DNA from: Arbacia lixula
Lineage: Eukaryota > Echinodermata > Echinoidea > Arbacioida > Arbaciidae
NCBI GenBank assembly: GCA_963669155.1
Contig: OZ022585.1
Coordinates: 10,364,378-10,428,377, forward strand
Direction: 5' to 3'
Length of the DNA: 64,000 nt
The position numbers were made by a program, and so were the translations under genes. Of this stretch, positions 1,789 to 57,978 are shown one piece after another. Positions within the stretch are counted from its first letter, which is position 1, and the number at the start of each line of letters is the position of its first letter. The notes below the pieces were generated by a model. The model worked only from the letters and a program-made list of their open reading frames with translations, searched no databases and had not been told where the DNA came from.

Positions 1789-4700
1789 GTGAATATCTGG
1801 GATTCTCATTTTATTTTGAGCTGGAGTTTGTCAGTGAGGACACTTGATAATGTATATTTATCTTTCACTTCAAGTATTGACTGCCACTGAACATTCCTTC
1901 ATGCATATATTGTACATATTATTTGTGTACAGGTTTTGGTCAACTTGCTCAATAATATTCTCATTCTCACTTTCATTTCAGTCTCACAGATTGATGGATG
2001 AATCTGTATTTTGTGCATTCCTCGCTCTTTTATTTGTAAACTGCCATTAATTTCTAAATTCTCACAAACCTTGATAGGCTTGATAAGTAGCCTCCGCCAA
2101 TTTATTTTTGATCCCCCCCCCCCCCCCCCCCGCCCACCACCCCCTGACGTATGTTTGACTCCCTGCTCAGATTGACTGCAGAGAACTGCGCCAGACCAGC
2201 CCGCTCTCACAGGTTGTACCCCCTAACACTAAGGCAGAGCTCCCCCTCATCTTTGAGTCCAACATCAGAGGAAAGTTCACAAGGTAATGTTTCTAATGGT
2301 TGTCATGGTGATAATGATTGGGATTCACCAAGCTCTTTGTAAGCTACAAGCAACTTTAAGCATGACTGCATGGCTACCTAGTGTTCTTGCGATCAGATTC
2401 TCAATGATTTTGATTTCCATCAGCTAAAATTGAAAGCTGATCTTTGTCAATTAAAATTCTTGTCGCTAACAAGCGTCTGACTTCAAAGTTCATGATTTCT
2501 CAAATTTGTTTAGGATTGTTGGAGATTAACTCCCACTATGTCAAGACAGGAACAAGTATGGGTATCTGATTTAGCACCAGAACGGGTCACCAGTTGTGCG
2601 CAAAGTTGTTCATAGCTTACAGACAGCTTGGTGAAACACCTCCCTCTCCCCGGGTCCTGTAAACTCAGTAGAGCGCTTTAACGTTGGAAAGTATGCATCG
2701 GTCATATTAGAGCATAAATATTCAGATGTGTTCTATGTGTTTGTATATATTATACTTTCACTACATTTGTTGGGATTGTAAGACTTCATTGTATATGCAT
2801 AACATTACCCATAAAAATCATTCGCCATCCAAGCATTCACACAGTTTATAGATTTGACATAAGGTCATGTGTGATACATATTAATCATTGATTTACAACT
2901 ATAAACTTGTGATTATGTTTTTTTTGTTATCATTCAGGAATGTGAAGTACACAATCAACGGCCATCATCGAGACCATGTGACTGTCTATGCTGATGTTGT
3001 GCCTGTAGCCTTAGAGCTGACAACAGAAAAACTAGAGCTAACTCCAACACCAGGCATGCCGGCTGAAGCAGGTAGGCTGACAGAGAGAAGGATGGAATGA
3101 GAGAGAGAGATGGGAAAAGTGGATGAATGTTGAGAAGGAAATGTAGGTTGATGTCGTGCCTGTAGCCTTGGAGCTGACAACAGAAAAACTAGAGCTGACT
3201 CCAACACCAGGCATGCCGGCTTAAGGAGGTAGGCTGACAGAGAGAAGGATGGAATGAAAGAGAGAGATGGGAAAAGTGGATGAATGTTGAGAAGGAAAAG
3301 GGGAGCAAGAGAGGATAAATGAGAGATAGATACATATAGCAAGAGGGAGAGAAAAGATGAGAGAAAGAGCAAACAAGTGAAAGTGAGAGAGAGAAAGAGA
3401 GAGAGAGAGGGGGATGAGTAAAAGAGAGAGAGAGAGAGATAGAGTAAGAATAGAGAAAGAGAGAGCACAAGTAAAATGGACCAGGGGGGAAGCATGTGGA
3501 GTTACATAGCCTTTAAAAACATTAAGACTCAAATGTGTAACATGATGCAAGTTTCTCTCGGTGCTTACCATGGGTGAATTCCATATGAAGTGATGCAGAA
3601 ATGTTGTTATGTGTACTTGGGTTCTCCATACCTTATATAAGGGAAAGGCATCCCATGGTGGACCGCACAGCCACACTCAGACATTGATTGCAGTCATGTC
3701 CGCTTCCAGTCTAGTTTACTAGTGTATGAGACTGGAAGCAGTCATGACTGCCAAGTGAAATCTGGATGTGCATTATGGGACGACTTTCCCCTTAAAGGGC
3801 AAATACTGTACTGGGAAGGCAAAAAAGCCTTCAAAAGGTAATTGTTAGCAATCTTCTTGCCAATGGTCTTAAATTCATGTATTGTCTATTTTAGAAGCTT
3901 GCTGAAAGTTATTCGCCCTCAAATGATGTACATTTGTAGTAATGAGTGATTAAATCACAAATCCTCAAAATGTTCGGGCCGAACATTTTGAAGATTTAAT
4001 CATTAATAATTAATTACTCCATATGTGGATCATTTGAGGGCAAATAACTTTCAGCAAACTTCTAAAGTAGTCAATACTTGAATTTAAAACCATTGGCAAG
4101 AAGATTGCTAACAATTACCTTTTGAAGGCTTTTTTGCCTTCCCAGCACAGTATTTGCCCTTTAAAGAAATTTGCTGCTGGAGAATTCTCCCTGTCGCGTA
4201 TAGCTCCCCGAATCTGAACGTGTGTGGCGCTCTAATTTTTTTACCTTTAATTCTTGGGATATGAACTACCGGTCCACGAATATTCAGCAATCCCGTACAA
4301 TAGGGGACCAGGTACTATCCAACTAATTTTATGAATTTGAACCCTAAACCTATCCCTGACCTTAATACTTACCCTAAACCTAATTCTTAACCTAACCCTG
4401 ACTCTAACCATAACCCTACACAAAATGTTCGCTGCTTAATTCATTAAAAAAGGGATTTCTAGGTCACTTTCTGCCGACGACAAACTCTTATCGAAAGTAT
4501 ACGTCCCAAGAGCAATCGATCAGATATCGGTATCGCGAGGTGATATCGCTTGATATCGGCTAGATGCAATAGGGAGAATTGCTGTGTACCATGTGAACTA
4601 ATGGGAGTTTGTATGTATTCTTGCCATCGCTGCGTGCTGCAGGTCTGAGGGACGTGATCCGTCTGCTGAACAAGAGGAACTTTCCCGCTGAGTTCACCTG

Positions 4701-7700
4701 GCAGCCCATCCTGGGAGAGAGAGGCACGGCCTTCTCCATCAGACCTGCCACCGGTACGTACCAAGCAGACCATGAGGGTGTCTCTCTCAAGTACTATTGG
4801 TGGATTTATAGTTTACTTGTCATTAATTCATGTTTGTTTTGCTTGTTATGAATTTATTACAATTCATTACAAATTATTGCAGTCAATCACTGCTTAAAGG
4901 TGGCCCGTTCTTTTTACATACGTCTGCAAACTTCATGAAAGTTTACACATATTTAGCACATATGTTTGGGATACCAACTGTAAAATTTTAAGGTCAGAGG
5001 TTCTACAATTCTAGTAGAATCTCGATTTTATTTTTTGAAATTCCGATTTTTTTTGTGATAGCAAAAAAGAAAGCTCAATCAATTATCAAAGATTACTTCC
5101 TCAAAACCGATTGTTATACTTTGTCGATTCCAGGAAAAAATTATACAGCCACTCTCTCTCAAATGATGACAAAGTCAGGGAACTTTCAGAATTAGGTCTG
5201 CAAAAGGGATGGGCTACCTTTAAGCTCATGGAGCTGCATGGTTGTGATCAGTGGCAATTGCAGAATTCATCCCTGCCTTGTTCTGATAGTGTCTTTGCTT
5301 CTCCTTCAGGTACGGTGGAAGCATTTAAGGACTTAGAGTGTGAGGTGGTCTTCCATCCGTCCTACCACGCACCAGAAGACGGGGAGTTTGCCCTTCAAGT
5401 CCATGGTGGCGAGACGCAGCGACTCAAATGTGTTGCCGATGTAAGTTAAACTTTGCTTTAATGTCTTCCTCCGTCCATTCATTTCAAGGATGTGAATAAA
5501 GAAGCAGCGAATGTGTCACTATACTTCAGGACTTAATAAATCACCCAAATATTTATTTTAAAAGATTTTTTTTTGATGGGGGGGGGGCTTCAAAATATGC
5601 TTTATCAGACATAGTGTCAGTATAAGGCATACTATGTATACCATAAGATAATTACAGGCCACAAGAAGGATTTGATTCTCAAAAAATATGTGTCACATTG
5701 TTGTTAATCATTCTATTTATGTATTTTTGGAAATTGAAATGCATGTAGGCGTGATTTTAGCATTGTAACAGTTGAAGAGAAGGTTATACATTGCTCCTTA
5801 AAGTCAGGATGTCCCATTTGCAAAAGTTATGAAACTCGTCTGGAATTAGCAGTATACCCAAACAATGACGTGTATGAAATCTTACAGTCATAGCCTCATG
5901 AAGCTTTTCAGAAAGAGTGAAAAAACTATTGATGTTAACATTTGAAACCTAGCGGCCGCAGTCTACATTCACGATTGCCCCTGTCGATGCGCAATGTCAT
6001 GTACCGCGCACCGCAGACATGCTCTTATTGAAGGCATGAGTACGCAGCGGTCTCCGGTCTCTAGGCTATAGGTTTCGGACCACCAGCCCAAAACATCAAA
6101 ATGTAGCGATTGCTATAATTCAGTAATAAGTCAGTTTTCAATTCAATCATTGAGAAGAAATTTCTGATACAGTATCTTCTTCCACTTTCCATGGTTGTTA
6201 CAAAATTTAATTTTTTTATTGCTTTAACCTACAAAAGGGAATAGTGTCTTATGAGGAGTGTACTTACTGACATTGAATCCATCGTATTGTAAAACTCCTC
6301 TACACTCTTTGCACTGATTGTTTTTCAGCTTGGAGTGACACAGGTGATGTTCATGGAGAGGAGGGTATTGTTTGGGCAGGTCCCTCTTCACCTGACCACC
6401 ACCAGGACCGCTGTGCTGCATAACAACAGCATCAACCATGCATACTTCCAGGTGAGTTACACGGCTTTTAATCAGAGTGAAAGCTGCCTTAGCGACGGCC
6501 ACCACCATAAAACCAACAGTGCCTTGATTGTACTTCAGTTGAGCTGCCAAGTAGTACTGATTTTCAGTATTTCATACTGAAATTATAGAAGAATACTGAC
6601 GGTTTCATGCAAAATACTAATTTCTTAAGTTTTAGTTCATATGTTGTCCTATTGTCTTTATTTGAAAATACTGATTTTTTTTCCATCAAAATACTGATAT
6701 TTAGCCTTTAGATAACTGAAATGCTTTGTTGGCAGCCCTGCTTCAGCTTTATGTGTAGGTTCTGAATGGTTCTGCGTAGACATTTATATTTAAAAAATGT
6801 TTCTCATGGAAACCTTTGTTAAAGTAACCTGTCTATAGGGCCACCTGCTTATGAAGCCTGCCAATCTTGTCTCCCTTAAAAGGGATAGGTCACCCTGAAG
6901 ATGACTTGATTTCAATAAAAGCAGAAACATGAAAGCAACATATTAGTGAAGGTTTGACGAAAATCGGTCGAAGGAAAAAAAAGTTAGATTTTGACATTTC
7001 AATGAAGTCACGTCTAGGGGGTGGTGCCCGTGGGGACACCACGGAGCTGAAGAATCACCTCCATACATATTATTACACAACATCATCACCCCTGTTCCTC
7101 TACCCTAGGTGGTGGACCCAAACCCCGTCCCTGGCCTCAACGTGTCCCCCGTCCAGGGGGTGGTGCCCGTGGGGGGGACCACAGAGCTGAAGATCCACCT
7201 GACCCCCAGCGCCGTCATGAAGTTTGACACCCGCCTAGAGGTGGCCATCCGTGGCTGGAAGACCATTGACCTGCGCATGGGCGGTACCGTAGAACCCCCG
7301 CTGGTGGACATTGACATCGTACGTAGCCTCAGGGGTTTGCTTCTCATTTCAATGACTCATGATCACAGTGATCCAGACTTCAAGTAGAAACCTAGAGCAG
7401 TATGTTGAAAAATGAATCTTTTGTTATATCATTCTCAGATATTTAAGCTCTAATATTGTTGTAAGTTGGTAAACTTGTACGTCTTGATTATTTCTAAAAC
7501 CCTTTGATGAGTCACAACCAATCAAAATTTACTTTATATAGGTCCGTCAGCCAATTGAAACAATTTCTCATGCTTTGAAGCGAAATTTTGTGTTAACTTA
7601 AAAGAAGAAAGATAACCCTAAAAAATGAGACAAATGTCAGAATACCAACTTAGTTGTAAGTGCGTAGATACAAGAATATTAGAGATGCAAACATTTTCAG

Positions 7701-10700
7701 AATTCTGCACCAGGATGTAGGCCATGGGTGACACAATGGTTTTTATTTTGTATTTATGATTTTAGGCATATTAGCTATTAATGGCCTAGACTAAAAAAGT
7801 ACCTGAAATCCTTTGTTTCTAAGTTCTGCCCTGTCACCCTAAAACTTGTATCATGTCATCGAGACATATTTTCACTGGTATACACCAAATAGTGTGGATC
7901 TCTCAACTCTCTATGGACTATTGATTAATCTCTATTTAAAGTTTTCTGAGTGTAACTCTATGCCTTCACAGAAATGTGTAAGTCTAACAATTATGAAGGC
8001 AGCATTTTCTATTCTCCCTTGCTGTACTTACCGGTTATGATTTATTACTTTTCTTGTCTCTCTTAACCAGAGCTGCCAAGTCTCCCTGATTTCGCAGGAG
8101 ACTCCCTCAAAATAGACTAATATTACTGCCATGGAGTTGATCACATCACCCAATCTCCCTGATTATTGATAGATTATTGTCATTGGGTTGCATGCTTTTG
8201 ATAGACATCTCCCTAATTTCTGATGAAATTTCCCCAAATCTTCCTGATTGTTGAGTTTCAACGTTGGTAGCTCTGTTTTTAACCCTTCCTGTACCAGATA
8301 AAATGCTTCTTAATGGGATTTGTGTACATTGCTGGTGAGAAAACACATGGTACATAAAGAGGAACTAGTAACAACATATCAACTAGACAGACCGGACAGC
8401 TAGCCTCGTATACTTTGCTGCTGTACCAAAGTTCTATTGATATTAATGTTTACGATGGCATGTAGTCATGGACCCTGTTGCATAAAACTGACCATTGATG
8501 GTAACTTTGCTCCCAGTGGCAGTTTCTATGGTAACCTTGAATTTGATTGGCTGGCAAGCGATGTTACCATGGTAGTTACCATTGATTACAGAGTTACCTT
8601 TAATGGTAAGCTTTATGCAACGGGGCCATGATATATCGTTTCTGCTTATCCCCCAGCCACCATTCCAGCTTGGTGGGGCGTACTGTCATGGTGGCTCCAG
8701 CCCGAGTGTCCCCTTTAAGCTGCTGCTGCTGCTGTACCAAAGTTATAGTGGCATTAACGTTTACGATATCGTATAGTTATGATGTATCGTTTCTTCTTAT
8801 CTCCCCAGCCGTCATTCCAGCTTGGTGGGGTGTACTGTGGGTCCAGCCTGACTGTCCCCTTCAAGCTGATCAGCCGGGTCAGGACCAGAGCCATGGTGGT
8901 CTTTGACCTCTCCCGCTTCAGAGACTTCTCTCTCAAGTTTGATGCAGACGTCATGGAGGGTATGTCTCATGATGGCCAGTCACGTTTTCAAAATATAGCA
9001 TTTGTCATTTTTCTGTACCATATTCTCTTGTACTAGTAACACATGGAATAGCAGTAGACAATATGTTTAGGGGTGGTCTGTCCATCCCATTGTCTGTCCA
9101 TTCATGCCTGATCAATTCAAACAGATGAAGCAAACATAAATGTGTAGGCTGTTCTAGTTCTTATTTATGATTTTTTTTTAACAAAACGATCATGCACAAT
9201 CAGTGCTTATCCTAAGATAAGGCTTGATACAGGAGTTCATATCATGATAACACATTATCTTGCTTTGTTTATATCTGTTTTATTTTGTCTTTCCTGTATC
9301 TTCTATCTTGATCTTTTGCAGATTTCCTCTGTGCAGATCCATTTAAAGTGATTTTGTTTAAGATGCCCATGTAACTCCTCCCATGCCCCCTCTCTGCTCC
9401 ACCACAGAGTCTGAAGACACGCTGCACCCCGGGGTCTTCAAGGTGACGGTGGGCGGGGAGCAGACCATCCACTGCCAGCTCAAGTTCCGTCCGACCGAGG
9501 TGGCTTCCTACGACTTCATCATCCCAGTCAGCATCAACCAGACCGAGGCTCCCACCCCAGACGGAACCCCATTCCCGCCGACCCCCGCCCCTTCCTCCAA
9601 GAGCATCCAGCACATCATTGCGCCACGCCCAGTGCTGGTGTCCGTGTCGACACCCAAGAGGAGGATCGTTGCCACGGCACTGCGGCAGCCACTGCAGGTG
9701 TCCACTTCAGACCTCCACTTCACCCTGCCGTCGGGCTACCTAGAGATGGGTGAGTCAGCCAGGGCAGGGGCTTCGATCCATCTGAATGGGGAAGTCTACT
9801 CACAGAGCTATATAAGGCTAACAACCAGTTCACTTGATCAAAGCAGGTGAATCTGTAAAAATGAATATACAAAAGCATTGGACTAATTTTTTTTGACAAA
9901 GGATGAAAAAGGTTTCATTTTTTTTTAATAAGCCATTTGTGACAACTCCTTGTTATATACCTCAGTGGATTTGTTTCTCCCTTTGTTAAGCTTCAGCTAC
10001 AAAGTTGCCAGAAGCGGTGTCCATCCTATGTCCCTTTACAAAAGCCCTAAACCTGACAAAAGCATTCTGCTCTTTTTTTTTTTTTTGATGAAAAAGTTTT
10101 CAATTTGTATAATTAGCTAATTGTGACAACTCCTTGTAATATACCTCAGTGGATTTATTTCTCCAATTGGTAAGCCTCTCCTACAAAGTTTCAAGAGGCG
10201 GTGTCCATCATATGTCCCTTTACCTAGTCCCACTGCACAGATTTAACTTGGGTGTCATTGGGATTGGTTTTCCCCTGTATGCACCCCAGGCTGCATATCT
10301 GATTACTCGTTTTTGCCCACCAGGTCTGGCTGAGAACGCCCAGCAGGGCCAGTCCATCATGCTGGTCAACAACAGCTCAAAGAGACTGCAGTGGGCCCTG
10401 GACCTCCGGGCCTGTGGCAAGGCCATGGAGGAGGGCATCTTCCGATTCATCCGGTCCAACGGGGTCCCCTTCCTCACCTTTGAGAAGGGGCGGCAGGAGG
10501 TGAAGGAGGGGCTGGAGCCGGGAGAGGTCTACTGCATGGGATGCATGTTCTGCCCAGGTATGTAATGTTGAGAGAGAGAGAGAGAGAGATAGAAGAGGGG
10601 AGAGGGGAAGGAGAGAATGGAGATGAGGGACAGAGGAAGAGAAAGATCTTGTGGGAGAAAAAATGAAAGAGAGCTAAGATTACAAAGTTTGATTATACTC

Positions 10701-13700: not shown

Positions 13701-16700
13701 TCAGCACAGATTGCTTTTATGAACAGAGCATTTTTGTGTGCATTTAGCTCAAGTTCAAATCAGCATTTTTAAACTCGCATACAGTAGATACACATTTAGA
13801 AACACTAACTCTAACTTTAGAAATGTACACACATACATGGACAGATGGTGTATTTATCAACTTTCTACGGTTAGAATCATCATTTCTAATCACGTTTGAG
13901 AACACTGATTATAGCCAAGAAAAGAGTTGACGTACCCATGGAAGGACACTGTACTCCTTTTTTATTTAGTAAAGTGTAGGTCAGACAGGCTTGTGTATTT
14001 GTCTTTATCGGGGGGATATATTGGACGGGCAATATACGATGGCTTTAACGGTACACCATGCGTCATGCTGGAAATTGCTACTGGATTTGTCCTCAAACAG
14101 CTATGGAGAACCTAGTCAGAGAGCAAAAGCTTTGTAAGAGGGTAGCTCTGATAAGAGCTTGGTGTTACATGAAACCCGCTTGTTGGAGAATTTATATCGT
14201 TCATGTGAAGAAGACCAAAATGATTATGGAATCTAATCGGGTCCATCTAATTACCCTGCGCAGAATCAACCTATCGCAGCACTCCCCGTGATGGAGCGGT
14301 GAACCGGGTCAACTACAGCGGGTCAGCCCCTGCCTACGAGGACTCCCGCATGGGGCTGGCGTCGCGGTCTCTAGGGTCGGCTGCCTTCCCCAACGAGGAC
14401 TCCGAGGAGGGCATCTTCCACTCGGAGGTGCTGATGGCCGTGCAGCGTTGGATCACCCTGCATGGCTGGTCAGGGGGACCCTTCCCTGTGTCTCTGCCTG
14501 AAGGACTCAGGAGGTCAGCAAACCTTCCATGTTTGGGGCAGTATTCTGAAATGCTCACCTAGAACAATTCTTATCCTAACTATCTCCTAAGTTTTCTCCT
14601 TACTTTTCTCATGACTTTATGCAAAATTATGCAAATCATAAAGTTTATAGGATTCTCATTGCACAATGCGCATATGAGAGGATTTAGGAGAATATTTAGG
14701 AGAAAACTTAGGAGAACCACCCCCTGTCCTAGCCATTCAACTTCAAGCAGCAATCAAATTCGTAAGCGTACATGATTGATGTGTAAGCATAGTTGCACAT
14801 CCACAGAGTTAGGATGAAACCTAGGAGAAAGTCCTGATGAGATGTTGTTATTGTGATTGGCTCTTCATAAATGAAACACTCTTTTTTTTTCATATGCTGC
14901 AGTCAGCGCACTGTAGGGACTCAAAACATCACTATTTGGCATTTATTTAATTTCAAGAATATAATGAGATGAAATATTGATATCACAATTTGTCATTGTT
15001 AACATCCATTCAGTACTATATTATATACTATAACCAACCACTATTACGAAGGCATTTTAACAAAAATTTAACATGAGATATAAACGAATGGGTTTTTGAA
15101 GGGAGGAAATGGATCCTTGTAAGTATAACTTAACATTATCTTGTATGTTGACCATCCAGTGGAGTGTCCAAGGGGTCAGCAGCCGAGGCCGCGAGGGACA
15201 AGTCCAGCCAGAGCTCTCCGGCCTCCAACAACCAGAAGCGCAGCTACACCAAGACCATCTACGATCTGATGGCCCACCTGAGCGGCCGCCTGGTGCCTGG
15301 TATCCCCATCAACCAGGCCCTCCCTGGCGACCCTACAGAGAGGGTGCTGCAGCTGCACTGGCAGCACTCCACACTGCTTACCTTCCTCAGGTAAGTGTCA
15401 TATACCATAATATGAACCTCATCTAGAGAATCCTGACTCCGCACTGCTCACCTTCCTTGGGTTGGTGTCATGTACCGCAATATGGACCTCATCTAGAGAA
15501 TCCTGTCCTTTAATTGGTTAAAAGCCATGATATAGATTCAATTATCCACCTTTGCTTCACTGGCAGCTAGGACTCCAACCTGCTCACATTCCTCAGGTCA
15601 GCACCAATGTCAGGGTTATATTGCATAATATTGACCTCATCTTAAGAATCATGTCCTCTAATTGGTTCAATGTTTTGACATAGTCACCCACCTTGAAACA
15701 GTCTATGGTACTTCATCGTCCTCCTTTGCTACACTTGCAGCACTATACCCTGGTCACGTTCCTCAAGTCAGTGTTATAAAGCGAACAAGTTGTAAATGAT
15801 TGGGCCTCGCTCTTCATCTCAATACACTCTACAATACCCTCTTGTACACTCTCAATACACTCTACAATACACTCTTATACACTCTACAATACCCTCTTGT
15901 ACACTCTCAATACACTCTACAATACACTCTTATACACTCTACAATACCCTCTTGTACACTCTCAATACACTCTACAATACACTCTTATACACTCTACAAT
16001 ACCCTCTTGTACACTGTCAATACACTCTACAATACCCTCTTGTACACTAGCTCTCAATACACTTTACAATACCCTCTTGTACACTCTCAATACACTCTAC
16101 AAAAATCTCTTGTACACTCCCAATACACTCTGCATACACTCTACATCTTAATACAGTGCAACAAGTATAGAGAAAGTGACCGAGTTTCCACTAATCCATA
16201 CCACATCTTGTCTTGGTCCCATCTCAGGAGCCAGGGTGCTGGAGTGGCAGGCATCAAGCCAGAGTACCTGTTTGAGCCTCAGGACTACCAGCGCTGGATG
16301 AAGCTGCAGGAGCAGGTCCGGGAGAAGAAGAAGGCTCAGCAGGAGGGCAAGTCGACCGTCGCCATCACCATTGAGGAGGAGCCCCTGGATGAGACACTCT
16401 TTGAGTCTGTTTCCAAGAGAGCCTGGACGGACCTACTGCTACAGACTATCAAGGTATGAAGGAATAAGAGAAGGAGAGGGATTGGGAAGGAATGAGGAGG
16501 AGATGCTCTTTGAGTCTGTCTAAGAGGGTCTGGAAAGACCTTCTGCTACAGACTATCAAGGTGAGTAGGAATAAGAGAAGGAGAAGGATAGAGAAGGAGA
16601 AGGATAGGGAAGGGATGACGAGGGACAGCTAGATGCTCTTTGAGTCTGTCTCTCTTAGAGTGCCTTGACTGACCTTCTACTACAGACTATCAAGGCAAGA

Positions 16701-19700
16701 AGGAAAATATAAGGGAGAATGAGAAGGAGGAAAAGGAGGAGAGAAAGAGAGGGAAAGGAGAAGGAGGAGAAGGAGGAAGAAAAGAGAAGGAAAGAGAAGG
16801 AAAGGGGAAGAGGGTGACAAGGAGATTCTAGACAAAATTTATAATCAAGAGAGTGTGTACAGATAGCTCTTCTGCTTGAGATTCTCAAAATGAGAAGGAA
16901 AGGAGAGGGAAGTTGAAGAGAAGAAAAGAAAAGAGAGGAGAAAGGAGCTGTTGAAGAAAGAGTAGGAGGTGTCACAGAATATAGAACCCTGTTTGAGCCA
17001 GATAGTGGAGTATGGTTCTGTACCAAAGCAGAAGAAACAAGATACATTAAAGAGCAAATAGACCCCCTCCATCAGATGTACTTTACACATTCTCAAATAG
17101 AGTCCTGGAGATTGAAATGCTCTTGTTGTTTTTGCTTGCAGGTGTTGGTTCTTGCCCGGATCACGCCCCGCCACTTCCGCACCCTGCCCACCCCCGGCAA
17201 TGTGAGCCTGCCGTCGGTCAACCACGACCCGCTCTGTAGCAACATCTACTCGGTGGGGGAGCGCATCTTGCTGTCATGGCTCAACCATCACTACGAGCAC
17301 CAGAGGGTTAAGATCTGGAACAACTGTGACAAAGGTAGGACAGAGGAGAGGGCAATTTAACCCTTTGTCTCCTAGGTCATGCCATTCCCATAGTTTCTGC
17401 ATAGACAACAAATCATACCTGTAAACTAAGATGTAAATTTGATGGTTTTATCTCCACTTCATCATTACTTTAAATATGAGTGAAAAAAAAAAAGCCTTAA
17501 CGGATACCACTTTACAGGTGTAAATCTGTTCTCAGACCCTTGCAAATAGCATACTTGGCTAATTTCTCTGGCTTTGTCTGTGCTTTCAGAGGTTCAAGTT
17601 CATTTGGAACAGGTGTCGTGCCAGGGTTAAAAATGTTACTGATAATCTTAACTGTACACGTGTGTATAAACGTATGCAAGATGTATGATACAATTGTGAT
17701 ATTCTTTCTCAAAAATATTGTTGAAACGGAAGCATTTTTATTCGAATGTGTTATCACATTAGTAGATCCCTAAATCATATTTATTGACATTGATCATATT
17801 GCAAACACTTTTTCAATTCAGAGAAATCTTATCTCTATGACAAAATTGTAACCTATTACATACATACTACATTTGTGTTTCATTTGAATTTCTCTACCAA
17901 ATGGCTTTCACACAGTATCGATATTTAAAGGATTAATGGATTAGTTTAGTATTCATTTAGTTTCCTTCTTTATAACTTTTCTTAGGTTGAAATACTACCT
18001 CATGAGCATCATCTTGAATTTAAACCAAAAACAACTCTCTCATACTACAAGTCATATAATTATTTAATATTCTTATGTGCATGATTGTAAACTATCATAA
18101 GTCTGTAACAGTTATCATATTTTTCTCCATTGATTTTACCTGATGCATTATTCTTTTAGCCTTTCTGGATTTATTCTATCCACCTCCAGGTATTTGCATG
18201 AGTCTGTACTGATCTTATTATCCCTATATAATCCTAGACCCCTTGTTAATCTCCTTGTTAATCCTCAATATTCCTTCATCAATCTCATGTTCCCCTGCTG
18301 AGCCCTGTTTTTTCTAATGCATTAAATCTGCTTTTTACCTCCCCCCTCCCCCCCCCCCCCCCCCCCCAAAGAAAAGAAAAATGGTTTGACCCATCTCAGT
18401 TCTTAGATTATATTTAGATAATATTACAACCAAATCCCTGGTAACAGGATACAGGAACGCATCTCCACTCCATGGGGAGTATTCTTTGCCCGTGCAGGAT
18501 TGTCTGCCCTGGGCCAAAATTACTCCAATAATGGGGCACTGGCCCTGCCAGATACTCATTTAGATTCCTGGGTGGAGAGCAGAAATGTGGACTTAATATT
18601 TTACTGATGGACACAGCTCACAAGAACTGTACAACAACTACTTAAAAATGAATTGATTCGAACTTTTTGAGGAAAAACAAATCCACAGGGGATATTCATA
18701 ACATATATAAAAAATACAGATACATAGATAGATATGATAGATAGATTTAGGTTTTTCAATAATGAAGAGGATTCTGTTTTAAATAGATAATTTGTGTGGA
18801 TTGTTTACAACAGTCTAGTCTTCTTTTGATGTAGATCAATATGGAATAGCCCTTTGTCAGTGTAAAGATAGATTACTTCTCTTCTCTGTTTAGTGTTTTT
18901 AAATGAGCTCGGTGTTCTTACTGGATAATGTTATTACCTCTTTGATGAGAATAAAAGTGGTATTTATTGCAACAATTGTAAAGTGCTATTCGTGCACTTT
19001 TGCACAAGTAGTAAACACAAATCCCCAAATGCAGGAAATTCTTTAATGTAAAATATATTTTGTCTCTATCTTAATATCTCTATGATATTTCATATAACTT
19101 GATTAAGTATATAATTGTTAGGTATTCTGATAACCATACAACTTCATATCTTACTCTAATTGCTTTTTGTGACATATCATTATTTACAATAAATAAGATA
19201 ATGGTGATGGATATTAATCAGGTGAAATAATACTGTAAATTCAGTGCAAATATAACCATGGATCATCTAGTTATTCAATGTACTTGCTTTTAACTGTACC
19301 TTTCTTATAACTATTTTGATATGATTCGGTATTCTCTATCTAGCCATATATCACATTCAGCCTAACCTAATTAAGTAGAGACACATATTCTGTACATATT
19401 CACAAGCTAGAGTTGGGATGGGTTTCTTAAGACAATGACAACTCTAAGCTCTGCTTTAAGTCAGATAGCGCTATCTAGGCTAGTGCTCAGATAGTGCTCC
19501 TCTACCTAGAACTGACATTGGAGTTGTCATCCTTTTGAGAAACTTGCCCCTGAATATAATGACAAGTTCCCATCATGCATTCCACTATTGTGGATTGTTT
19601 AGATGGTGTATTCCTCTCCTACCAAGCCACAAAGCACATACAGAAGCACAAACGTGCATACATATACATACATACACACATACACACATACACACATACA

Positions 19701-32600: not shown

Positions 32601-35600
32601 TTTGCAAAAGGGGTTCGATCCATTTTTCATCAAATTTGTTTTTTTTTTTTACTCAATGTATAGATTTGAAGTAGCTCTATAAGATGATACCAATGAAAAG
32701 TTGACATTCCCATTAAAAATGAACAAAAATGGCAAAGAAAAATCACTTTTTTTTAAAAGGGGTTCGATCCATTTCAGTTTGTCTGCAAAAGGGGTTAGAT
32801 CTACAAAAGGTACTTTTTTGAAAAAAATATTTTAAAAATATGAAGACGGGTAGATTTCTTTTAGACCACATTTTATGTTCACATGATAGGGTAGCATATT
32901 ATGACAATTTAGTTTTGCACAAGAATATTGCAATATGGGAGATTAAAAAAAGTAGATTTTCTCAGAATGGTCAAAAGTGAATCTAACCCCTTTTGCAGAC
33001 AAAATGAATAGATAGTTTGCAAAAGGGGTTAGATCCGTTTTTCATCAAATTTGTTTGTTTTTTTTTACTCAATGTATAGGTTTGAAGTAGCTCTTCATAT
33101 ACTACATGTATATTCAAATTGTTTACACATGTCCAAAATTACTTGTTTATTATTGATTATCTGTGAAATGTATTTGATCCTATTTTACCATGTGTGTAAA
33201 TATAGTTCATTTTTTCACGTTGATGGAATTTAATGAATGAGTTAATCAATCAATCAAACCTCTTCAAGGTTATGACCAATGTTATTTTTTTTTTTGACAT
33301 TCAAGCTTGGTGACTGGGTGTTTGTAGCATCAGGGACCGGACTGACACCCACCCCACTAGACCCAGTCAGTGTGAGTGCTACGCTGGGCTCCAACACTTC
33401 CCTCATCATCCCGTTCAGGAATCCGACAGCAGATAACATCCTGGTGGATGTGGCGCTCACTGGTGAGTCTATGAACCCTCCCAATACCAAGCAATTGTAG
33501 TCCCATGTCAAAAGCAGCACTATTTATTGTCTATGGGACTAAGAGTGATAAACCTCTCAATACCAAGCAATTGTAGTCCCATGTCAAAAGCAACACTATT
33601 TATTGTCTATGGGACCAAGAGTGATAAACCTCAATTATTTCCTCAATCAATTATTTTGATGTTTATAATGTAAAATTGACATTATGCGTTACTCTCAAAA
33701 ACATATTAAGATGCATTAAATGATATTGAAAAAAAAATCTGAGAATGTTTGTGATTATATTGAGTGACAATGGAATAACATTCATAATCAGTTTTACAGA
33801 TATTACTTTTAAAGGTCCTCAAATAAATCTTAATTTCTCTGCTTGATGCCAACACCTAGACAACACTGAGCTGCCTGAGCAAGCCCAGGTACTCTTTATA
33901 AAGTTCCCAAAATAAATTTTAATTCCTCTTTTTGATGCCAACCCTTAGACAACACTGAGCTGTCAGAGCGAGCCCAGGGCCGGTTGGAGCGTAATCGCAT
34001 TCAGCCCGAGTCTGCCTTCTGTCTGCTGCTGAAGAGAACAGCCAGCATCCCCGTGGCGCCAAAGGCCACCCTAGACATCCCCATCACCTTCGCCCCTGGA
34101 CAGATGTGCCTCCACGAGGCCCTTTGTCTGGTCTCCATTAAGAGAGAGAGCGGGGAGCATTGGGACTACCTGCCAGCCCACGACCCTGACCACCCAGCCG
34201 CCAGGAGGTGGGTTCAAAGAATCGATTCACTGTCTAACATGTCTGGAGGATATTTCACTAAGCTGTTCTTAAGCTAAGAACAACTAGTACCAGTCTAGTG
34301 TTAGTCTAGTTACAGTCTAGTCCCAGTGTAGTACTATAGTCTAGTCCCCATCTAGTCCCACCCTAGACCTAGGCTAGTCTGAGTCTAGTACTAGTCTAGT
34401 CCAATTCTAGTCCCATTCTAGTATCAGTCTAGTCCCAGTCTAGTCCCAGTCTAGTACTAGTTTAGTCCTAGACTAGTCCCAGTCCAGCCCTATTCTAATA
34501 ATCACTTCTGTCCTTACACAGAGACCATGACCGGCGTGACCCAGGCAGTGGTGGCCTACGGGATATCCGCTGGATCTATCCCATCAGGGGTATCCCTGAG
34601 TCCCAGCCCAGGGTGGAGAGGGGCGCTGTGGTCAGTTGCCAGGCCCGCAGCAGGATCGAGGAGAGGCTGGAGGTCTCGCTGACGGGTGCGGTGCCCAGCT
34701 CGGCCTCAGCCAGCGGTCATCAGATGGTCAAGACCAGGGCGGTCACTCCCAAGGACCAGGTCAATGCCGCATCTCCAGCCGGGGGTGTGGGAGGGGATGG
34801 GGGTGATGATGGAGTGGTTGTAGGAGAAGGTATGTTCCATGAAGCTCTCTCTCTCTCTCTCCTCTCTTTTCTGTTTCTCTGTATCCATCTTCACACATTG
34901 TCTTTGCATTCTTTGTTGCATAGGACACAGGTTGAATCTTCCGTCGCCATCTTCCTAGGCACAGAAAGTGTTATTCCACTTATATATTAGTTCCTTTGTA
35001 GGTCATGCATGAGCTGCAAAATGATTTAGAAGAAGACACTCATTTGAAATGTTGTCATTGGTAGTGAAAGTCAAATTGCTGCTCGATAGTGTACAGTAAG
35101 AACCTTTTTTGTCTCGCCTGAAAGAAGTTCGGTAGAGACCTAGTGATCACTTTTCCTGTTAGTCTGTTGGTCTGTTAGTCTGTTGGTCTGTTACAAAAAT
35201 GTTAAAGTTTTTCTTTAACTTGCTCTCATTTCTTTATTTCTGCATCAATTGTGATCACACTTGGTACGAATGATCCTTGGGTAATACCACATGTGTCGTC
35301 ATGAGGATGATTGGGTCAAAAGGTCAAATGATATAGGCCATGTGCATAATTTTTTCTCAAAGTTTTTGTTTGACTTGCTTTCATTTCTTTATTTCTGCAT
35401 CAATTGTGATCACACTTTGTACAAATGATCCTTGGGTAATACCACATGTATCTCTTCATGAGGCTGATGGGGTCAAAGGTCATCTAGGGGTCAAAAGGTT
35501 TGAAAAAAATATTTGAAAAACAAACTAAGCACTGTTTATAGATTGTGAAATCAGGCGAGACTTGTGGTTCACGAACCTCCTTGTTTAAATGAGTGATGAT

Positions 35601-38600
35601 TTTTTAAATGGATCCATTACTATGCTTCCATATTAAATGTATTATATAATGATAATAATTGTTTCTTTGTACGATTGTTTTGATTTATACTTCAACATGT
35701 TATTCAAGTTCTATGTCAATTGTTATAAAGAGCCCCATGTAAAGACTACCAGTATAAAGTGAATGGGCTACCCTGTCAACATCAGAAGTATCAGTTACTA
35801 AAGAACCCAATGACCTTCCCTCCCAGGTAACACAGTCGCCAGTGAGTTCAGCTATGAGCTCCTCTACCCCAATGACGAGGCCCGGGTGCAGCTAGAGAAC
35901 GCCGTCTCCCTACAGCTGGTCCGTAGACAGAGGGAGAAGCTGACTGGGAACATGACCCTCGTCTTTAACATCGTCTATGCTCCCTTCAAGACCATGAGGT
36001 CAGTCAGTGCATCTTGATCAGCTCTCATGGTCTCATATTTGTGACCCTTAGCCACAAAACTAGGATGAAATTGCCAAATTTAAACTCATGTTTTATTAAC
36101 TCGTCCATGACCAGGGCCCTTTTAAAGCAAACAAAAGCGTTCTTTGGCTTTCAAATTGGCCACAATATCTTTTGTAAACACAATTTCAAGCAGCAATTTA
36201 TTGAATATGCAGTGTAAGTTCAGCATTTTCAGTTTGTTGCCAATTTGAAGATTTACTGATCTTTTCGCCTTTATTTCGCTAACTGGAAAATTAGTAGGGA
36301 AGGTTGATTAAGCACTGTTTTGGATGAAGCTCATAAACCGTAGTGCACTTCAGAAGCTAACAGAGTGCTTGTTGTTTCTTTGTTGCAGGCATGATGTTCA
36401 GCTGTGTGTGAAGGCTACTACTGGAGGGGTGTGGCGGTTCCCTCTAGGTTTCATCTCCACTGAGCCAGCTGTAGATGATGTCATCACCATCGAGTCTATC
36501 GGCCTCAATCAGCAAGCCATGGTTGGTTTCAGGCTCACCAGCCAAGCGAGGTAGGACACACCTTTAGTATCTCATCCAGGATTTAGTTTTGGGGGAGGGG
36601 AAGGGGAAGGGAAGGGGAAAGGGGAGAGGAAGGGGAGGGAGGGGTATATGGGAAGGGGGGGGGTAGGGGAAGGGAAGGGGGTGGAGAGGGGAAGGATAGT
36701 TGAAGGGAAGGGGATGGGGAGGGGTAGTGGAAGGGTTAGGAGATGGGTGATGGGAAAGGAGAAGGGGAATATGGGAAGGGGGAGGAGTAGGGGAAGGGGG
36801 AGGGGAAGGGGAATCCCTCAAGCCCTCTGTGTCAGCCCTCATGCAGGAGACTCAAGTATCAAACAATATCATATTAATGGAGTATTATCAAAATCAGTAT
36901 TGTATGGTTCATGTTTGGTGTTGCAGACACCCAGTTGGGTTTCAGGCATATGTACTTTGGAGCGCCAAAGAATATCATAAAGATGGCATATTTTCATCAT
37001 TATTATTATTTTCATATGATTGATGATTGCTGTTGCAGACACCCGGTTGGGTTCCAGGCCTACTTTGTAGCCGGGAGTGACCAGGAGATTTCGGTGAGCC
37101 CTCAGACGGGAGAGCTGAAGCCGCAGGGAACCCATGGCACACTCATCACTGTGGGCTTCTCTCCCAAGCTCTACGGCAAGACTTACCATGCAAGGCTGGT
37201 CGTGCAGGTGAGTCAACACGGCAGTAAACTTGTCCTTGGTTGTGTTAAAGGGATAGTTCACCCTGAAGATAGGATGGTTTCAATAAAAGCAGAAACTTAA
37301 AAGAAACGTAATAATGAAGGTTTGATGAAAATCCGTCAAAGCTTAAAGGATGAGAAAGTTTCTGGTATGTATGTAAAAAAAAAATGTATTTCTGATGATG
37401 TATCAAATGCACAGGTAAAAGTATGCATATTTTTTTTTAGAAAATGCACATTTTTCAAAAAAAAATTGTACACAGCATATGGGAGAGCACCTCACACATG
37501 ACGTCACAAATTCAAAATTGTAAAAGATCATCACTTTTTTATCCTTTGACAGATTTCCATCAAACCTTCACTAATATGTTTCTTTCATGCGTCTACTTTT
37601 ATTGAAAGAAACATGATTTGAGGGTGAACTATCCCTATAAGGCCCCTGCAGAAAACATGTTCCAATCAGAACTACGACTCTATGACTGGCTGAATCTCAG
37701 CACCCAGTCATGAGATTTGTACAAACATGTGATGCAGATTACCAGTCATAGGCCATCACTACTGCAGAATCGTGGCAAAAATTATGTCATTACAGTGGCT
37801 TTCAGACAATCATTGCTGATTTGCAAATAGTGTTATTTCCATCGAAACAGCCAGGTATGTGAGTATTGTACTCATAGGTATCTGTTTCTGCCAGTTACAG
37901 ATCTGTCTAAATTGTATTTACTAAAATTACATTTCAATTCAATTCAATTTTATCTTACTAATATTTTGCCCTCAGAGACTTTTATTGCATGTTCAAAACT
38001 ATGCATGCATGATATTTACAAGTATGCATTCTATCTTTGTTGATGATTGAATTAAAAAAGAATGCAGAATTGACAAAATGAGTACTTAGTAAACACATGT
38101 ATATAATGGAGAGGTAAATCAAGATGTGTGTTGCATATGTATGATGTAGAGAGAACTGCAAGTTTTAAAGTGTTGTATTTTCCTTTCCCCTCCCCAGAAG
38201 ATATTCTGAGTCTTATAAAATAAACAAGCTGGTCGATCCAGATTTGTGTTGGATATGTATGACGTTGAATGAACTGCAAGTTTAAAGACAGGATGTCCCG
38301 TTTGAAACTCGGCAGGAATCAACGGTATACCCTTACGATAACGTGTGTGAAATTTGACAGTCATAACTTCACAAACATTTTCAGAAAAATTGAAAAACTA
38401 CCCTTGTTTATGTGTGAAACGCACCGCCAACAGGCTATAGTCATAGTGGTATTGTCCCTGTCACTGCATGATGCGGGAATTACTCCCATTGAACGCATGA
38501 ACTGTGGAGAGGACCGGTGCGGAGCATAGCGCACAGCGCTTGCCGGTCTCTAGGCTATAGATTTCAGACGACCCGCCCAAAACCTCCTCAAAATCTTCTG

Positions 38601-39258: not shown

Positions 39259-40240
39259 ATAATGGATGCATTGATATATAACACTGTATGAAGACTATGA
39301 CTTCAGCTTATATGTATGTGTCCATCACCTCTGTATCATCTCGCATCAAGGGGGTGCCCGTCCTATCCAAGAAGGCCGACAATGGAATCAACATAATGTA
39401 AATATGGACATATACCACTGTTTGAAGTCTATGACTAGATCAAGCTGTATTGGATCATCACAAATGTATCATCTTCTATCAAGGGGGCGTCCGTCCTTTT
39501 CAACAAGGTTGACAATGGAATCTAAATGATAAGTCTAAACTCACTTTCGAGTCTCGACAGTTGATCCACACTTTATAAAAACACAAGATAGCCACCACAC
39601 TGACAGTGGTCCCAATGGGACAAATCGTCTCAAGACTCAAGAAGCAGGAATTAAAGACTCTTTGAAGACTTTGTTGTAAGGCAATGTGCATCAGACCACT
39701 AGTGCCATGCCATCAGCCATCAAGGGGGGTGCCTGTCCTACTCAATATGGCTGACAGTGGAGTCATATATAACGCTGTTTGAAGATTCGTATTGAATTAA
39801 CCTGTCTGTGATCACCATTCTTTCTCCAAAAAAAAAAAAGACATCCGTCCTTCTTTACAAGGCTGGAAATCTTAAAGACTATGACTGGATTCGTGCACTG
39901 GAAGCAAACTTTGAGATATTACTCACCAATTTGAAGACTGTGAGTGGGTCAAGTTCACACGTATGGAAAGAGGATATAGCTGTAGAAAGGAGTATGATGA
40001 AAAATATGTTCATATCTAGTAATCTTATACATTCCAGGTGCACCAAATGGTCACACAAGTACTAAATCACCATGACGATGTTGTTTTTAAAGACTGCTGT
40101 CATTTTGGGGTGTGGGGAATTCAATATAAATGGCCTTGCTCAAAATGTTGTTGAAGGGATTGACAGGCATTTATAGAATGCTTTGTTTGAGTGAAAGTAA
40201 TATATATTTCAAATACAATAAAATAGTGTAAATATATATA
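39259..40240 (+). other. CFAP47: Probable CFAP47 3' untranslated region
   Basis: Noncoding sequence after the stop. The hexamer aataaa lies at 40217-40222 in AT-rich DNA, and further aataaa motifs are at 41115-41120 and 41332-41337. The true cleavage site is not determinable here. The first ~600 bases hold 3-4 degenerate copies of the last coding exon's tail. Confidence 0.55.
39330..39890 (+). repeat. Tandem copies of the CFAP47 last-exon tail
   Basis: catcaagggggtgcccgtcc (39346), tatcaagggggcgtccgtcc (39477), catcaaggggggtgcctgtc (39718) and a weaker copy near 39840, each with aaggccgacaatgga-like text; the originals are catcaagggggcgcccatcc and aaggccgacagtgga. Confidence 0.88.
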
Positions 40241-49845: not shown

Positions 49846-49849
<4 letters not shown>

Positions 49850-49905
<56 letters not shown>

Positions 49906-51201: not shown

Positions 51202-51202
<1 letters not shown>

Positions 51203-51267
<65 letters not shown>

Positions 51268-51923: not shown

Positions 51924-52108
51924 AAAAACCTGTGCACACACGAGCCCTAATGTCCATGCACTCATGATCACAGTAACCCCTTGACACAGTGAAGAAATGA
52001 GCACTGGTGTATAAAAATGAGAGATGTTGGCTTTTGCAGACAGATTCTGGGTTCTAGTCTGGCCTGGTGCATACACCCTTGGACAAGGTGTTTCACTCAT
52101 GTGTCTCC

Positions 52109-52442: not shown

Positions 52443-52586
52443 GTTGTAAATAAGTATCTGGCAGGAATGGTTGTTCCTGATCGATTTAGCTCAACTAGCT
52501 TCTAGCCTCAACTATGGATGCTCGCTAAAACCAGAGTAAAAATCAAGCACCATGAATGGTATTCTGGTATTTTGAACAGCGCTATT

Positions 52587-52748
52587 TCAAATCTGATTAT
52601 CTTGATAATTATGAACAGAATCTGCTTTCCTTACTGAGAATGGAGCCATTGGTCTGATGACGTCATTGTATCTCCTCATAGCCTCCATGATGTGATGTGG
52701 CTGGATGGCACGGTATTGGCTGAGAGCAGCAAGGGTCACTCCATTCCC
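52587..52748 (-). CDS. SUPT3H: SUPT3H terminal exon f
   Basis: Minus-strand acceptor ccctgtag, phase 0, stop TGA at 52587-52589. Encodes AALSQYRAIQPHHIMEAMRR and YNDVIRPMAPF, the closing helix of histone fold 2. After PFS a gtaagg could act as a donor to a further exon; the simpler reading runs on to NYQDNQI and stop. Confidence 0.83.
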   Translation of the reverse strand, partial: GNGVTLAALSQYRAIQPHHIMEAMRRYNDVIRPMAPFSVRKADSVHNYQDNQI

Positions 52749-55700: not shown

Positions 55701-57978
55701 AGGAAAGACGTATAAGTATAAAGTATAAAGGTCCATTCGTTCTTTTGTCTAAAAGGCGCGATGGAGACTGTCAACATGTTTTGGCAGAGTGCCTAAGGAA
55801 ACTGTGAGAAGGCAGGAAAGAAGAAGAAGGAAAAGGGATTGTCTTACTGAAGTTCATCTGCCTGGCCTCAGTGTACTCCTTGTAAGCGTTGAGGTCCATG
55901 CCCCGAGCCTTCAGGTCAGCTCGGTCCTGCCTCTCCAGCTTGACCGCGTCCACCTCCTCAGAGTCCAGCAGCACGGAGAGCTCCCCCGTGTGGTCAATGC
56001 TGGACAGGATGTCGTGGCAGAGCTTCCTCCGTTTGGCCTGCGATGCCTTCAGCTCTGGGTGGGGAAAGACAACAAGTTGATTACTTTCAATTTCAATTTA
56101 TTTATTCCACTTTGAAAAAAAATGTAAAAAAAAAAGCATAATGATGTAAATTTGCAAGTTTGTCAGGGAACCAAAATAACCATGCAGACTTGTTGGTATG
56201 GTCCCATTACACATATCAACACATGGGTTACAGTTTACCACATAAAGAAATACCAGATTAAGATTTTAATAATTTTAAGAAATTAAGATTTTTTTTACAT
56301 CTAACTTCTCTGAAAGACTACTCTGACTCTCATCCTTTCCACTTTACATTCTCTCTCTTCTAACTCAGTCTCTGAACAGCTCTTTTCAGAGCTATTCCTG
56401 AATAATTTGCAACTTTAATGTGTATTGACAACAAGTTCCAATAATGTCCTGAGAGGACCGTAATGTCAAATCTTGAATGCGTGTGAGATAAAGACAAGAC
56501 CCCACACATTGACCATTTAAACATTCACATCACCCTCCCCCCCCCCCCCCTCCCACTGCACCTTACAAAAGGCCTTCATCTCCTTGACAGCTGATCTGCC
56601 TGCCAATCTAGCTTCCCAAATGTCCTTCCTCAAGCCCAAGGAGAACCATTTCCCTGTACCACACTTTTCCAAGATCCTCCACCCCTCCTTAGCCAAGCAC
56701 CCCTACCCCCTTAACCTTCCAACATTTCCTCCTCCTCACAGCCGATCTGTCTACAATCTTGCTTCTGTTTCTTTCACCCCTCCACCCCCCCCCCCCCTCC
56801 CCCAACCCCCAAACCCCACTTTCACTATCCTTGTCCCGTACCTACCCCTTCCCTCTCCCTCATCTTCCAACACCACCTCCTCCTCCTCCTCGCAGCTGAT
56901 CTGTCCTCATGTCTTCGAAGTTCAGGAAATGGGAGAGCCTCCCCAGCTTTCCTTCTACCACCCCTAATAAAATACTCCTCCATTTCAATAACCCCCCCCC
57001 CCCCCTTTCCTTCCAGCACCACCTCTTACTCCTCCTCACAGCTAATCTGTCTACCAATCCTTGAAGTTCTAGAACAGGAAGAGCATCTTCAGTGTGCCTT
57101 CTACCACCCCTAATAACCCTCTCCCCCTCCTCCCTCCTCCCTACCACCCCCACAATTACGACCACCATCACCATCACCCACTTCCCCCTCCCTCACCTTC
57201 TGACACCACCTCCTCCTCCTCTTCACAGCTGATTGGTCTTCCAATCCTACTCCTCATGTCTTTAAAGTTTAGGAACTGGAAGAGCCTCCTCAGTGTGCCT
57301 TCTACCACCCCTAATAACCACCCCCCCCCCCCCTCCCGACCACCACCACCATTACCACCACCATCACCACCACCCCTTTCCCCCTCCCTCACCTTCCGAC
57401 ACCACCTCCTCCTCCTCTTCACAGCTAATCTGTCTACCAATCCTGCTCCTCATGTCTTTAAAGTTCAGGAACTGGAAGAGCCTCCTCAGCTTGCTGTGGT
57501 CACTCCTCATCAAGAAGATGAAGTCCTCGATGCTGATCAGCCGCGCTCCCCGTAACAAACACATCTCTGCTGCCCTCTGTAGCTAGAAATTGAAACAGTT
57601 TGTAGGTGCAAGACCTGATCAGATTCATTCTACACCAAACAGGTGAAGATTTTTCTTTATCAATATCTTTCTTTCCTTTCTGATGACTTTATTGTCATTT
57701 TTATGTGCATGTTGTTATCTAAATTTTCTCCTTGTTTTGCTTTAATAAACATTTTATTAATTTTATCAAAAAGATTTTTTTTTAATTTGTGCCAGACAAA
57801 CTGCTGCTCTGCAATGCCTCGTGATATCAAATAAGCACACATCTGACAGCGGCATGTGAGAACTTTATGAGATGAAAATGTATGAGAACTTACTAGAATG
57901 GTCATCTGATGATGCACAATGTCTTCGATCAGAGACGCGGATTCTTGCAAGGGCTTTTTACAGTCTCCTAGTGCAAAC
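52587..57978 (-). CDS. SUPT3H: SUPT3H / SPT3-like SAGA subunit, 5'-partial
   Basis: Six minus-strand exons (listed separately) join in phase to give about 374 residues plus stop. SPT3 is a nuclear SAGA/STAGA coactivator subunit that carries two histone folds and helps deliver TBP to promoters. Matches to the family recalled by motif are: LGDxxxPLxEsAxLIEDIVHxQ plus RGARLISIEDFIFLMR and KLRRLFQFLNFKDMRSRI (histone fold 1); LSSIDHTGELSVLLDSEEVD; SKFKEWLEISHLEPKPNAF, AMEIVGYLAHETVAQIVDLS and AIQPHHIMEAMRRYNDVIRP (histone fold 2). A Ser/Pro/Asn-rich insert of roughly 75 residues ending in poly-lysine sits between the halves of fold 2 and has no counterpart in the human protein as I recall it. The first exon(s), encoding about 30 N-terminal residues, were not found to 64 kb. 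The gene is convergent with CFAP47. Confidence 0.9.
53228..53596 (-). CDS. SUPT3H: SUPT3H exon e, with low-complexity insert
   Basis: Minus-strand acceptor cacttccag, donor gtccgt (weak); phase 0 both sides, 123 codons. The start IVDLSFLVQRDMLASPSDPI continues histone fold 2. The rest is Ser/Pro/Asn/Gly-rich, ending in KSKSKKKKK at the donor. The weak donor makes the 3' boundary the least certain one of this gene. Confidence 0.85.
54228..54830. mobile_element. Older inverted copy of the 43154-43885 element
   Basis: Reverse complement of the element interior: caaaatcggatgcgcagaag, atttggggaaatat, cagattcattgtactctc. In the SUPT3H intron. Termini are degraded. Confidence 0.8.
54875..54987 (-). 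CDS. SUPT3H: SUPT3H exon d
   Basis: Minus-strand acceptor cttttttag, donor gtgagt. Phase A|TC in, 0 out; 113 bases. Encodes KKGSKFKEWLEISHLEPKPN and AFAMEIVGYLAHETVAQ, the start of histone fold 2. Confidence 0.93.
55421..55807 (+). other. Antisense open frame in a SUPT3H intron, no family recognised
   Basis: A 128-codon ATG-start frame of non-repetitive composition, opposite to SUPT3H exon c's intron. No motif, signal peptide or splice context identified. Probably chance; listed because it is the longest non-repeat frame outside the two genes. Confidence 0.15.
55848..56054 (-). CDS. SUPT3H: SUPT3H exon c
   Basis: Minus-strand acceptor ccccacccag, donor gtaaga. Phase G|AG in, A out; 207 bases. 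Encodes ASQAKRRKLCHDILSSIDHT, GELSVLLDSEEVDAVKLERQ and AYKEYTEARQMNF, matching the SPT3 middle segment. Confidence 0.92.
56560..57330 (-). repeat. Tandem copies of SUPT3H exon b end and donor
   Basis: On the + strand, copies of cttccgacaccacctcctcc, cacagctaatctgtctacca and ttcaggaactggaagagcct occur at about 57193-57310, 57010-57110, 56860-56965 and, weaker, 56560-56760, separated by C-rich linkers. Period about 155-190 bases. Confidence 0.85.
57393..57582 (-). CDS. SUPT3H: SUPT3H exon b
   Basis: Minus-strand acceptor aatttctag, donor gtgagg. Phase 0 in, G out; 190 bases. Encodes LQRAAEMCLLRGARLISIED and FIFLMRSDHSKLRRLFQFLN, and then an acidic run, CEEEEEVVSE. Its 3' end and donor are tandemly amplified in the following intron. 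Confidence 0.92.
57894..57978 (-). CDS. SUPT3H: SUPT3H exon a (first recognised)
   Basis: Minus-strand acceptor ttctctcag, donor gtaagt; 85 bases. Enters with the last base of a split codon, phase 0 out. Encodes FALGDCKKPLQESASLIEDI and VHHQMTIL, helices 1-2 of histone fold 1. An upstream exon is required. Confidence 0.9.

What the first reader, a model, noticed from the sequence alone, without database searches (positions are those of the whole stretch)
2992..57582. Tandem copies of exon-intron boundaries recur across two unrelated genes
At least eleven of 37 CFAP47 exons and one of six SUPT3H exons have degenerate local copies that carry part of the exon, often with the splice site and adjacent intron. 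Periods are about 85-190 bases, and both 5' and 3' exon ends are involved, on both strands. This could reflect a high rate of short tandem duplication in this genome, seen best where exons conserve one copy, or duplication biased to GC-rich exon edges or splice-site DNA. The detection bias is real: intron-only duplications (9868-10215, 31454-31713, 33477-33630) also exist.
Basis: partly seen in the sequence, partly recalled or inferred. Interest (0 to 1): 0.75.

Follow-up and report, generated by a model that had tools for sequence, protein, structure and literature searches.

The report
Ordinary tandem duplications straddling exon edges
In this sea urchin genome, short stretches of DNA are often copied head to tail, and because exons are packed closely in genes some of these copies happen to carry an exon edge and its splice signal; the same thing is known from amphioxus as 'mirages'.

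Summary
Of 37 CFAP47 exons in the window, 11 lie in local direct-repeat clusters: 9 have a copy crossing a splice site, one has an exon-interior copy only, one is the last exon (stop codon and 3' UTR). One of six mapped SUPT3H exons has donor copies. Ten shuffles gave no cluster. The window lies in a 607 Mb chromosome-scale assembly.

Exon-edge bias is not supported. Over the whole CFAP47 gene 10 clusters span splice sites, 8.3 expected (p=0.30); the window part alone shows 11 against 7-8 (p=0.04-0.10). Around 30 kinesin exons, chosen blind to duplications, 7 against 8.6; in loci with 87 predicted exons, 15 against 14. Exonic and intronic parts of crossing pairs are equally diverged (86.8%, 87.0% identity).

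What remains is a load of mostly 60-220 bp tandem duplications of many ages: 3.7 per 10 kb in CFAP47 and around kinesin exons, 1.2 at 17 chromosome points. This is the amphioxus 'mirage' in a sea urchin. About 20% of exons are touched; 9 of 10 crossing cases keep a decoy splice dinucleotide.

The parts
2992..3298 (+). 157-bp tandem pair, 96% identical; first copy holds the end of CFAP47 exon 2938-3071 and its donor; decoy donor GAG|GTAGGC in the intron
7011..7200 (+). exon-interior copy: 7011-7060 in the intron copies 7150-7200 of exon 7109-7318; acceptor not detectably copied
8416..8868 (+). 151-bp offset pair with the acceptor of exon 8809-8959; decoy acceptor CCCCAG kept
9869..10223 (+). 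intron-only tandem pair, offset 187, 81% identical
15352..15683 (+). degenerate copies of the donor end of exon 15160-15390 (offsets 70 and about 202); decoys TGG|GTTGGT (weak) and CAG|GTCAGC
16387..16767 (+). three degenerate copies (offset about 109) of the donor end of exon 16228-16453; second copy AAG|GTGAGT scores better than the real AAG|GTATGA
28717..28899 (+). 102-bp offset pair, 94%, with the acceptor of exon 28877-28995; decoy acceptor kept
30848..31085 (+). 137-bp offset pair, 78%, copying the start of exon 30989-31208; decoy acceptor lost (ACGG)
31454..31714 (+). intron-only tandem pair, period 130, 100% identical
31822..32021 (+). 148-bp offset pair with the donor of exon 31764-31868; decoy CAG|GTATGG kept
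33474..33632 (+). intron-only tandem pair, period 76, 95%
33807..33978 (+). 89-bp pair with the acceptor of exon 33949-34207; decoy acceptor kept
35204..35482 (+). intron-only tandem pair, offset 155, 90%
36860..37062 (+). 106-bp offset pair with the acceptor of exon 37039-37207; decoy TTGCAG kept
39188..39530 (+). 134-bp offset degenerate copies of the last CFAP47 exon's CDS end and 3' UTR (not a splice site)
56769..57492 (-). three or more copies (offsets 146 and 196) of the donor end of SUPT3H exon 57393-57582; one decoy AAG|GTGAGG identical to the real donor (57197), two others lost

Best explanation
The genome of this sea urchin steadily acquires short head-to-tail duplications, mostly of about 60-220 bp. 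They fall without regard to exon edges, decay, and sometimes expand to more copies. Because a coding exon edge occurs about every 600 bp in CFAP47, some 40% of duplications in the gene are expected to include one; these are 'mirages'. Selection keeps the exon-adjacent copy as the working splice site; the other copy drifts in the intron as a decoy. Shown: copies, positions, placement close to random, range of ages, decoy motifs. Inferred: that duplications arise by DNA-break fill-in and end joining or by template switching, that further copies come from slippage or unequal crossing-over, and that decoys are seldom spliced.
For: 23 clusters in the window against 0 in 10 shuffles. Whole CFAP47: 22 clusters in 59 kb, 10 splice-spanning against 8.34 expected, p=0.30. 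Kinesin exons: 39 clusters, 7 edge-spanning against 8.57, p=0.80. Predicted exons outside CFAP47: 15 of 45 clusters edge-spanning against 13.95, 17 of 87 exons touched. Offsets of 79 clusters: 67 lie at 50-199 bp, 9 above 250. 41 of 66 with offset under 260 are two-copy. Equal divergence of exonic and intronic parts. Amphioxus units of 150-160 and 157 bp with the same anatomy.
Against: The window part of CFAP47 alone shows a weak excess over random placement (p=0.043 for 17 short clusters), and exons touched in the whole gene are 11 against 7.5 for the 21 short clusters (p=0.069). Density around kinesin exons is 3.1 times that at 17 chromosome points (permutation of loci p=0.001), so placement is not uniform on the larger scale. 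The null ignores selection against duplications that disturb exons (coverage inside kinesin matches is only 0.07), which could hide a bias at the level of mutation. No junction mechanism was established: three window pairs reach 95%, with length/offset 0.96-1.09.
Confidence: 0.85

Rival explanations
1. Tandem duplication is mechanistically biased to exon edges or splice-site DNA, for example through R-loops or GC steps at exon borders.
For: 11 against 7-8 expected in the window part of CFAP47, p=0.04-0.10. Selection against edge duplications could mask part of such a bias elsewhere.
Against: 10 against 8.3 (p=0.30) when the upstream part of the same gene is added and the last exon's end is not counted; no excess in kinesin loci (7 against 8.6) or around 87 predicted exons (15 against 14). 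GC of clusters equals local GC.
Confidence: 0.06
2. Detection bias: duplications at exons stay visible longer because the exon copy is conserved.
For: Expected in principle; could account for a weak excess such as that.
Against: Exonic and intronic parts of the crossing pairs have the same identity, 474/546 and 515/592 (11 pairs at nine exons, two exons contributing two overlapping pairs each; local alignment ends may hide part of an effect). There is little excess to explain.
Confidence: 0.06
3. The copies are functional: alternative exons or regulated decoy splice sites under selection.
For: Decoy splice dinucleotides are kept in 8 of 9 crossing CFAP47 exons and in SUPT3H; by a simple score of mine three decoys (one donor, two acceptors) exceed the real site.
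Against: All 11 decoy extensions examined at the nine CFAP47 exons hold in-frame stops and 10 of 11 shift the frame, as chance DNA would. Retention is roughly what the pair identities would leave. No RNA was available.
Confidence: 0.03

Closest known systems
[quoted passage not shown] globins BflGb6 and BflGb9, Adh3, TnC, PGBD5; PMC3087553 and PMC3902484, passages read)
   Same: Tandem copies crossing 5' or 3' exon boundaries, units of 150-160 and 157 bp (globins), 60 and 108 bp (PGBD5), identity 81-100% in BflGb6, splice signals kept in many but not all copies.
   Different: Here in an echinoid, in CFAP47, SUPT3H and kinesin genes, and measured against random placement. Length polymorphism and undisturbed splicing, reported in amphioxus, were not testable here.
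[quoted passage not shown]
   Same: A tandem duplication crossing an intron-exon boundary provides ready splice signals.
   Different: No new intron is shown here; the coding sequence is read with one site at each exon edge.
Small tandem duplications from break fill-in by CST-Pol alpha-primase and end joining (PMC8355091, passages read)
   Same: Two-copy head-to-tail duplications.
   Different: That paper speaks of insertions under 100 bp and used 43-bp overhangs; here units are mostly 50-200 bp. Mechanism not tested here.

Membership tests
Mirage (amphioxus type) | Tandem copies that cross an exon-intron boundary | tested here: met
   9 CFAP47 exons and one SUPT3H exon
Mirage (amphioxus type) | Both 5' and 3' exon ends affected | tested here: met
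   CFAP47: 5 acceptors, 4 donors
Mirage (amphioxus type) | Unit length in the reported range (10-160 bp) | tested here: met
   70-157 bp best-pair offsets at CFAP47 exons; SUPT3H, 146-196 bp, reaches beyond it
Mirage (amphioxus type) | Many copies keep AG/GT signals | tested here: met
   8 of 9 CFAP47 exons and SUPT3H keep at least one
Mirage (amphioxus type) | Length instability between haplotypes | not testable with these tools
   One haplotype seen; the one stretch searched in the genome, 9868-10215, has a single match
Mirage (amphioxus type) | Normal mRNA splicing not disturbed | not testable with these tools
   No RNA data; the coding frame has no stop when the exon-adjacent sites are used
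Intron gain by tandem duplication | A new intron uses duplicated splice signals | not tested
   No genomic sequence of a related urchin was available

The most novel reading that the evidence does not exclude
Mirages are pervasive in this sea urchin: about one coding exon in five carries a local decoy edge, and short tandem duplications are made or kept about three times more often in and around genes than elsewhere, giving a continuing supply of cryptic splice sites in a second deuterostome lineage.
Probability: 0.4. Interest if true: 0.5.

Novelty: new member of a known kind. Interest (0 to 1): 0.33.

Why it matters
It shows that the amphioxus mirage, which the two papers seen here describe gene by gene, also occurs in a sea urchin and can be explained by a background of short tandem duplication without targeting of exon edges. 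If the load is general in sea urchins, their genes hold many decoy splice sites, which makes tandem-duplication models of intron gain and intron sliding testable in another animal group.

Tried and rejected
Exon-edge targeting: rejected as unneeded. GC-rich targets: rejected. Transposons as the cause: 2 of 23 window clusters, 3 of 20 at chromosome points and 5 of 32 in kinesin loci share more than 30% of their bases with another sampled locus, so most are not dispersed repeats at that sampling depth. A search for a copy of the acceptor of exon 7109-7318: I compared overlapping stretches by mistake and got a self match; done properly, no signal above shuffles. In one search I assumed that minus-strand loci were reverse-complemented; the shared clusters show that they are not, so its 'nonredundant' figure (38 clusters in 92,063 bases) is wrong. 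instead drops loci L041, L044, L049 (seven clusters: five second sightings and two seen only there, one of them across the exon edge of L049) and leaves 32 clusters in 27 loci; L027 and L030 still share about 490 bases, without clusters. Rfam gave nothing, tRNA search nothing.

Literature: of nine searches, seven bear on mirages, internal duplication or sea urchins; their listings showed no paper that I recognised as reporting mirages in an echinoderm. Only listings and the named passages were seen, and the library is incomplete.

Full report
What the window is. A protein joined from window reading frames is 74% identical to CFAP47 of the sea urchin Lytechinus variegatus and 73% to Diadema setosum, each over 55% of the query in the best local alignment; three joined exons match a solved CFAP47 chain. 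The window is C10:10364378-10428377 of an assembly of 606,990,701 bases in 590 contigs. Arbacia lixula, 607.91 Mb with 22 chromosome-scale scaffolds from PacBio HiFi and Omni-C (PMC11310861, passages seen), fits this, but the species is not proven; the paper counts 676 further unplaced scaffolds. SUPT3H, named by its match to the Lytechinus pictus SPT3 homolog, lies on the other strand at 51126-57905.

The observation. Self-comparison gives 23 local direct-repeat clusters in the window and none in ten shuffles. Eleven overlap CFAP47 exons and one overlaps a SUPT3H exon. Aligned copies cross a splice site at nine CFAP47 exons. One further case copies exon interior only, with no sign of the acceptor, and one covers the stop codon and 3' UTR of the last exon. 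The SUPT3H donor end has three or more copies, one decoy donor being identical to the real one and two lost. Best-pair identities run from 73% to 100%, so the copies have many ages and most cannot be assembly errors.

Is there a bias to exon edges? Placement was tested four ways. (a) Window part of CFAP47, independent random placement: 11 of 18 clusters span an exon edge against 7.87 expected, p=0.097; for the 17 with offset under 250, 11 against 7.04, p=0.043 (the end of the last exon counts as an edge there). (b) Whole gene of 59 kb with 22 clusters, splice sites only: 10 against 8.34, p=0.30, and exons overlapped 11 against 8.21, p=0.14; with the 21 of offset under 250, 10 against 7.67, p=0.19, and 11 against 7.47, p=0.069. 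(c) Thirty kinesin-motor exons with 1.5 kb flanks, taken from a family search without sight of duplications: 39 clusters, 7 span an edge of the match against 8.57, p=0.80; for the 34 under 600 bp, 6 against 5.85 (match edges only approximate exon edges, and five clusters are seen twice in overlapping loci). (d) 87 predicted exons in 27 kinesin loci and 18 other 10-kb loci (17 chromosome points and L004), CFAP47 left out: 17 exons touched, 15 of 45 clusters span an edge against 13.95, p=0.42; with stricter exon scores 13 against 12.09 and 10 against 10.08. Loci without a predicted exon contribute no clusters, and this set overlaps (c). The exon scorer found 23 of 30 kinesin exons and nothing in three shuffled loci. 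Together these give no good support for an exon-edge bias; (a) is a weak result for it in the gene that drew attention. The null takes no account of selection against duplications in exons, which is visible as low coverage inside kinesin matches (0.07 against 0.12-0.21 outside), so a bias at the level of mutation could be partly hidden.

Is it detection bias? If exon copies were conserved, exonic parts of pairs should be more alike than intronic parts. They are not: 474 of 546 against 515 of 592, over 11 pairs at nine exons. Two exons contribute two overlapping pairs each, and local alignment trims diverged ends, so this is a modest test.

How common is it? 22 clusters in the 59 kb of CFAP47 and 32 in 27 kinesin loci both give 3.7 per 10 kb. 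Seventeen 10-kb points on as many chromosomes give 20 clusters, 1.2 per 10 kb; the kinesin-to-point ratio is 3.1, p=0.001 when loci are permuted. The points were taken at base 5,000,001 of each chromosome, a systematic draw. The four of them with a predicted exon scoring above 40 hold 6 clusters, the other 13 hold 14, so I hold the genic excess as a lead. No other animal genome was at hand, so whether this load is unusual was not measured. Offsets of 79 clusters have median 138, 67 of 79 lying at 50-199 bp. Among 66 with offset under 260, 41 are two-copy, the rest longer arrays.

Decoys. At the nine crossing CFAP47 exons, eight keep at least one GT or AG decoy. By a simple scoring of my own three decoys exceed the real site: one donor (GTGAGT against GTATGA) and two acceptors. 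All 11 possible extensions contain in-frame stops and 10 shift the frame, as expected of chance DNA. The parsimonious reading is that the exon-adjacent site stays in use and the other copy drifts.

Mechanism. The two-copy form fits fill-in of staggered breaks followed by end joining (PMC8355091, passages) or template switching, with later slippage or unequal exchange where arrays have grown. This is inference; I did no junction analysis beyond lengths.

What is known. [quoted passage not shown] 60 and 108 bp repeats at splice sites are reported in lancelet PGBD5 (PMC3902484). The present case has the same anatomy. I file it as a new occurrence of that kind, in a sea urchin, with the added result that placement at exon edges is about what chance gives.

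Noticed in passing
L039:823-1565 (C21, kinesin locus): An array of period about 105 bp runs into a kinesin exon; the family search shows four matches of the same exon start (model positions about 66-89) within 900 bases.
   Followed up: partly
L011:4327-4952 and 6038-6235: In a 10-kb point sample two predicted exons (4916-5082, 6218-6364, - strand) each have a duplication cluster across an edge.
   Followed up: partly
43295-43882 (+) and 54222-54824 (-): Inverted pair of about 600 bp, 87% identical, 11 kb apart, probably two copies of a mobile element.
   Followed up: no
47296-48445: Minisatellite with offset about 165 bp, essentially all of whose bases resemble sequence in other sampled loci.
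   Followed up: no
32184-33094: 430-bp direct repeat in an intron with inverted repeats inside, looks like a tandem pair of a short mobile element.
   Followed up: no
L020:1-10000 (C18:5000001): The whole 10-kb sample is a satellite with offsets of 132 and 198 bp.
   Followed up: no
27 kinesin loci against 17 chromosome points: Density of short tandem duplications is 3.1 times higher around kinesin exons (p=0.001).
   Followed up: partly
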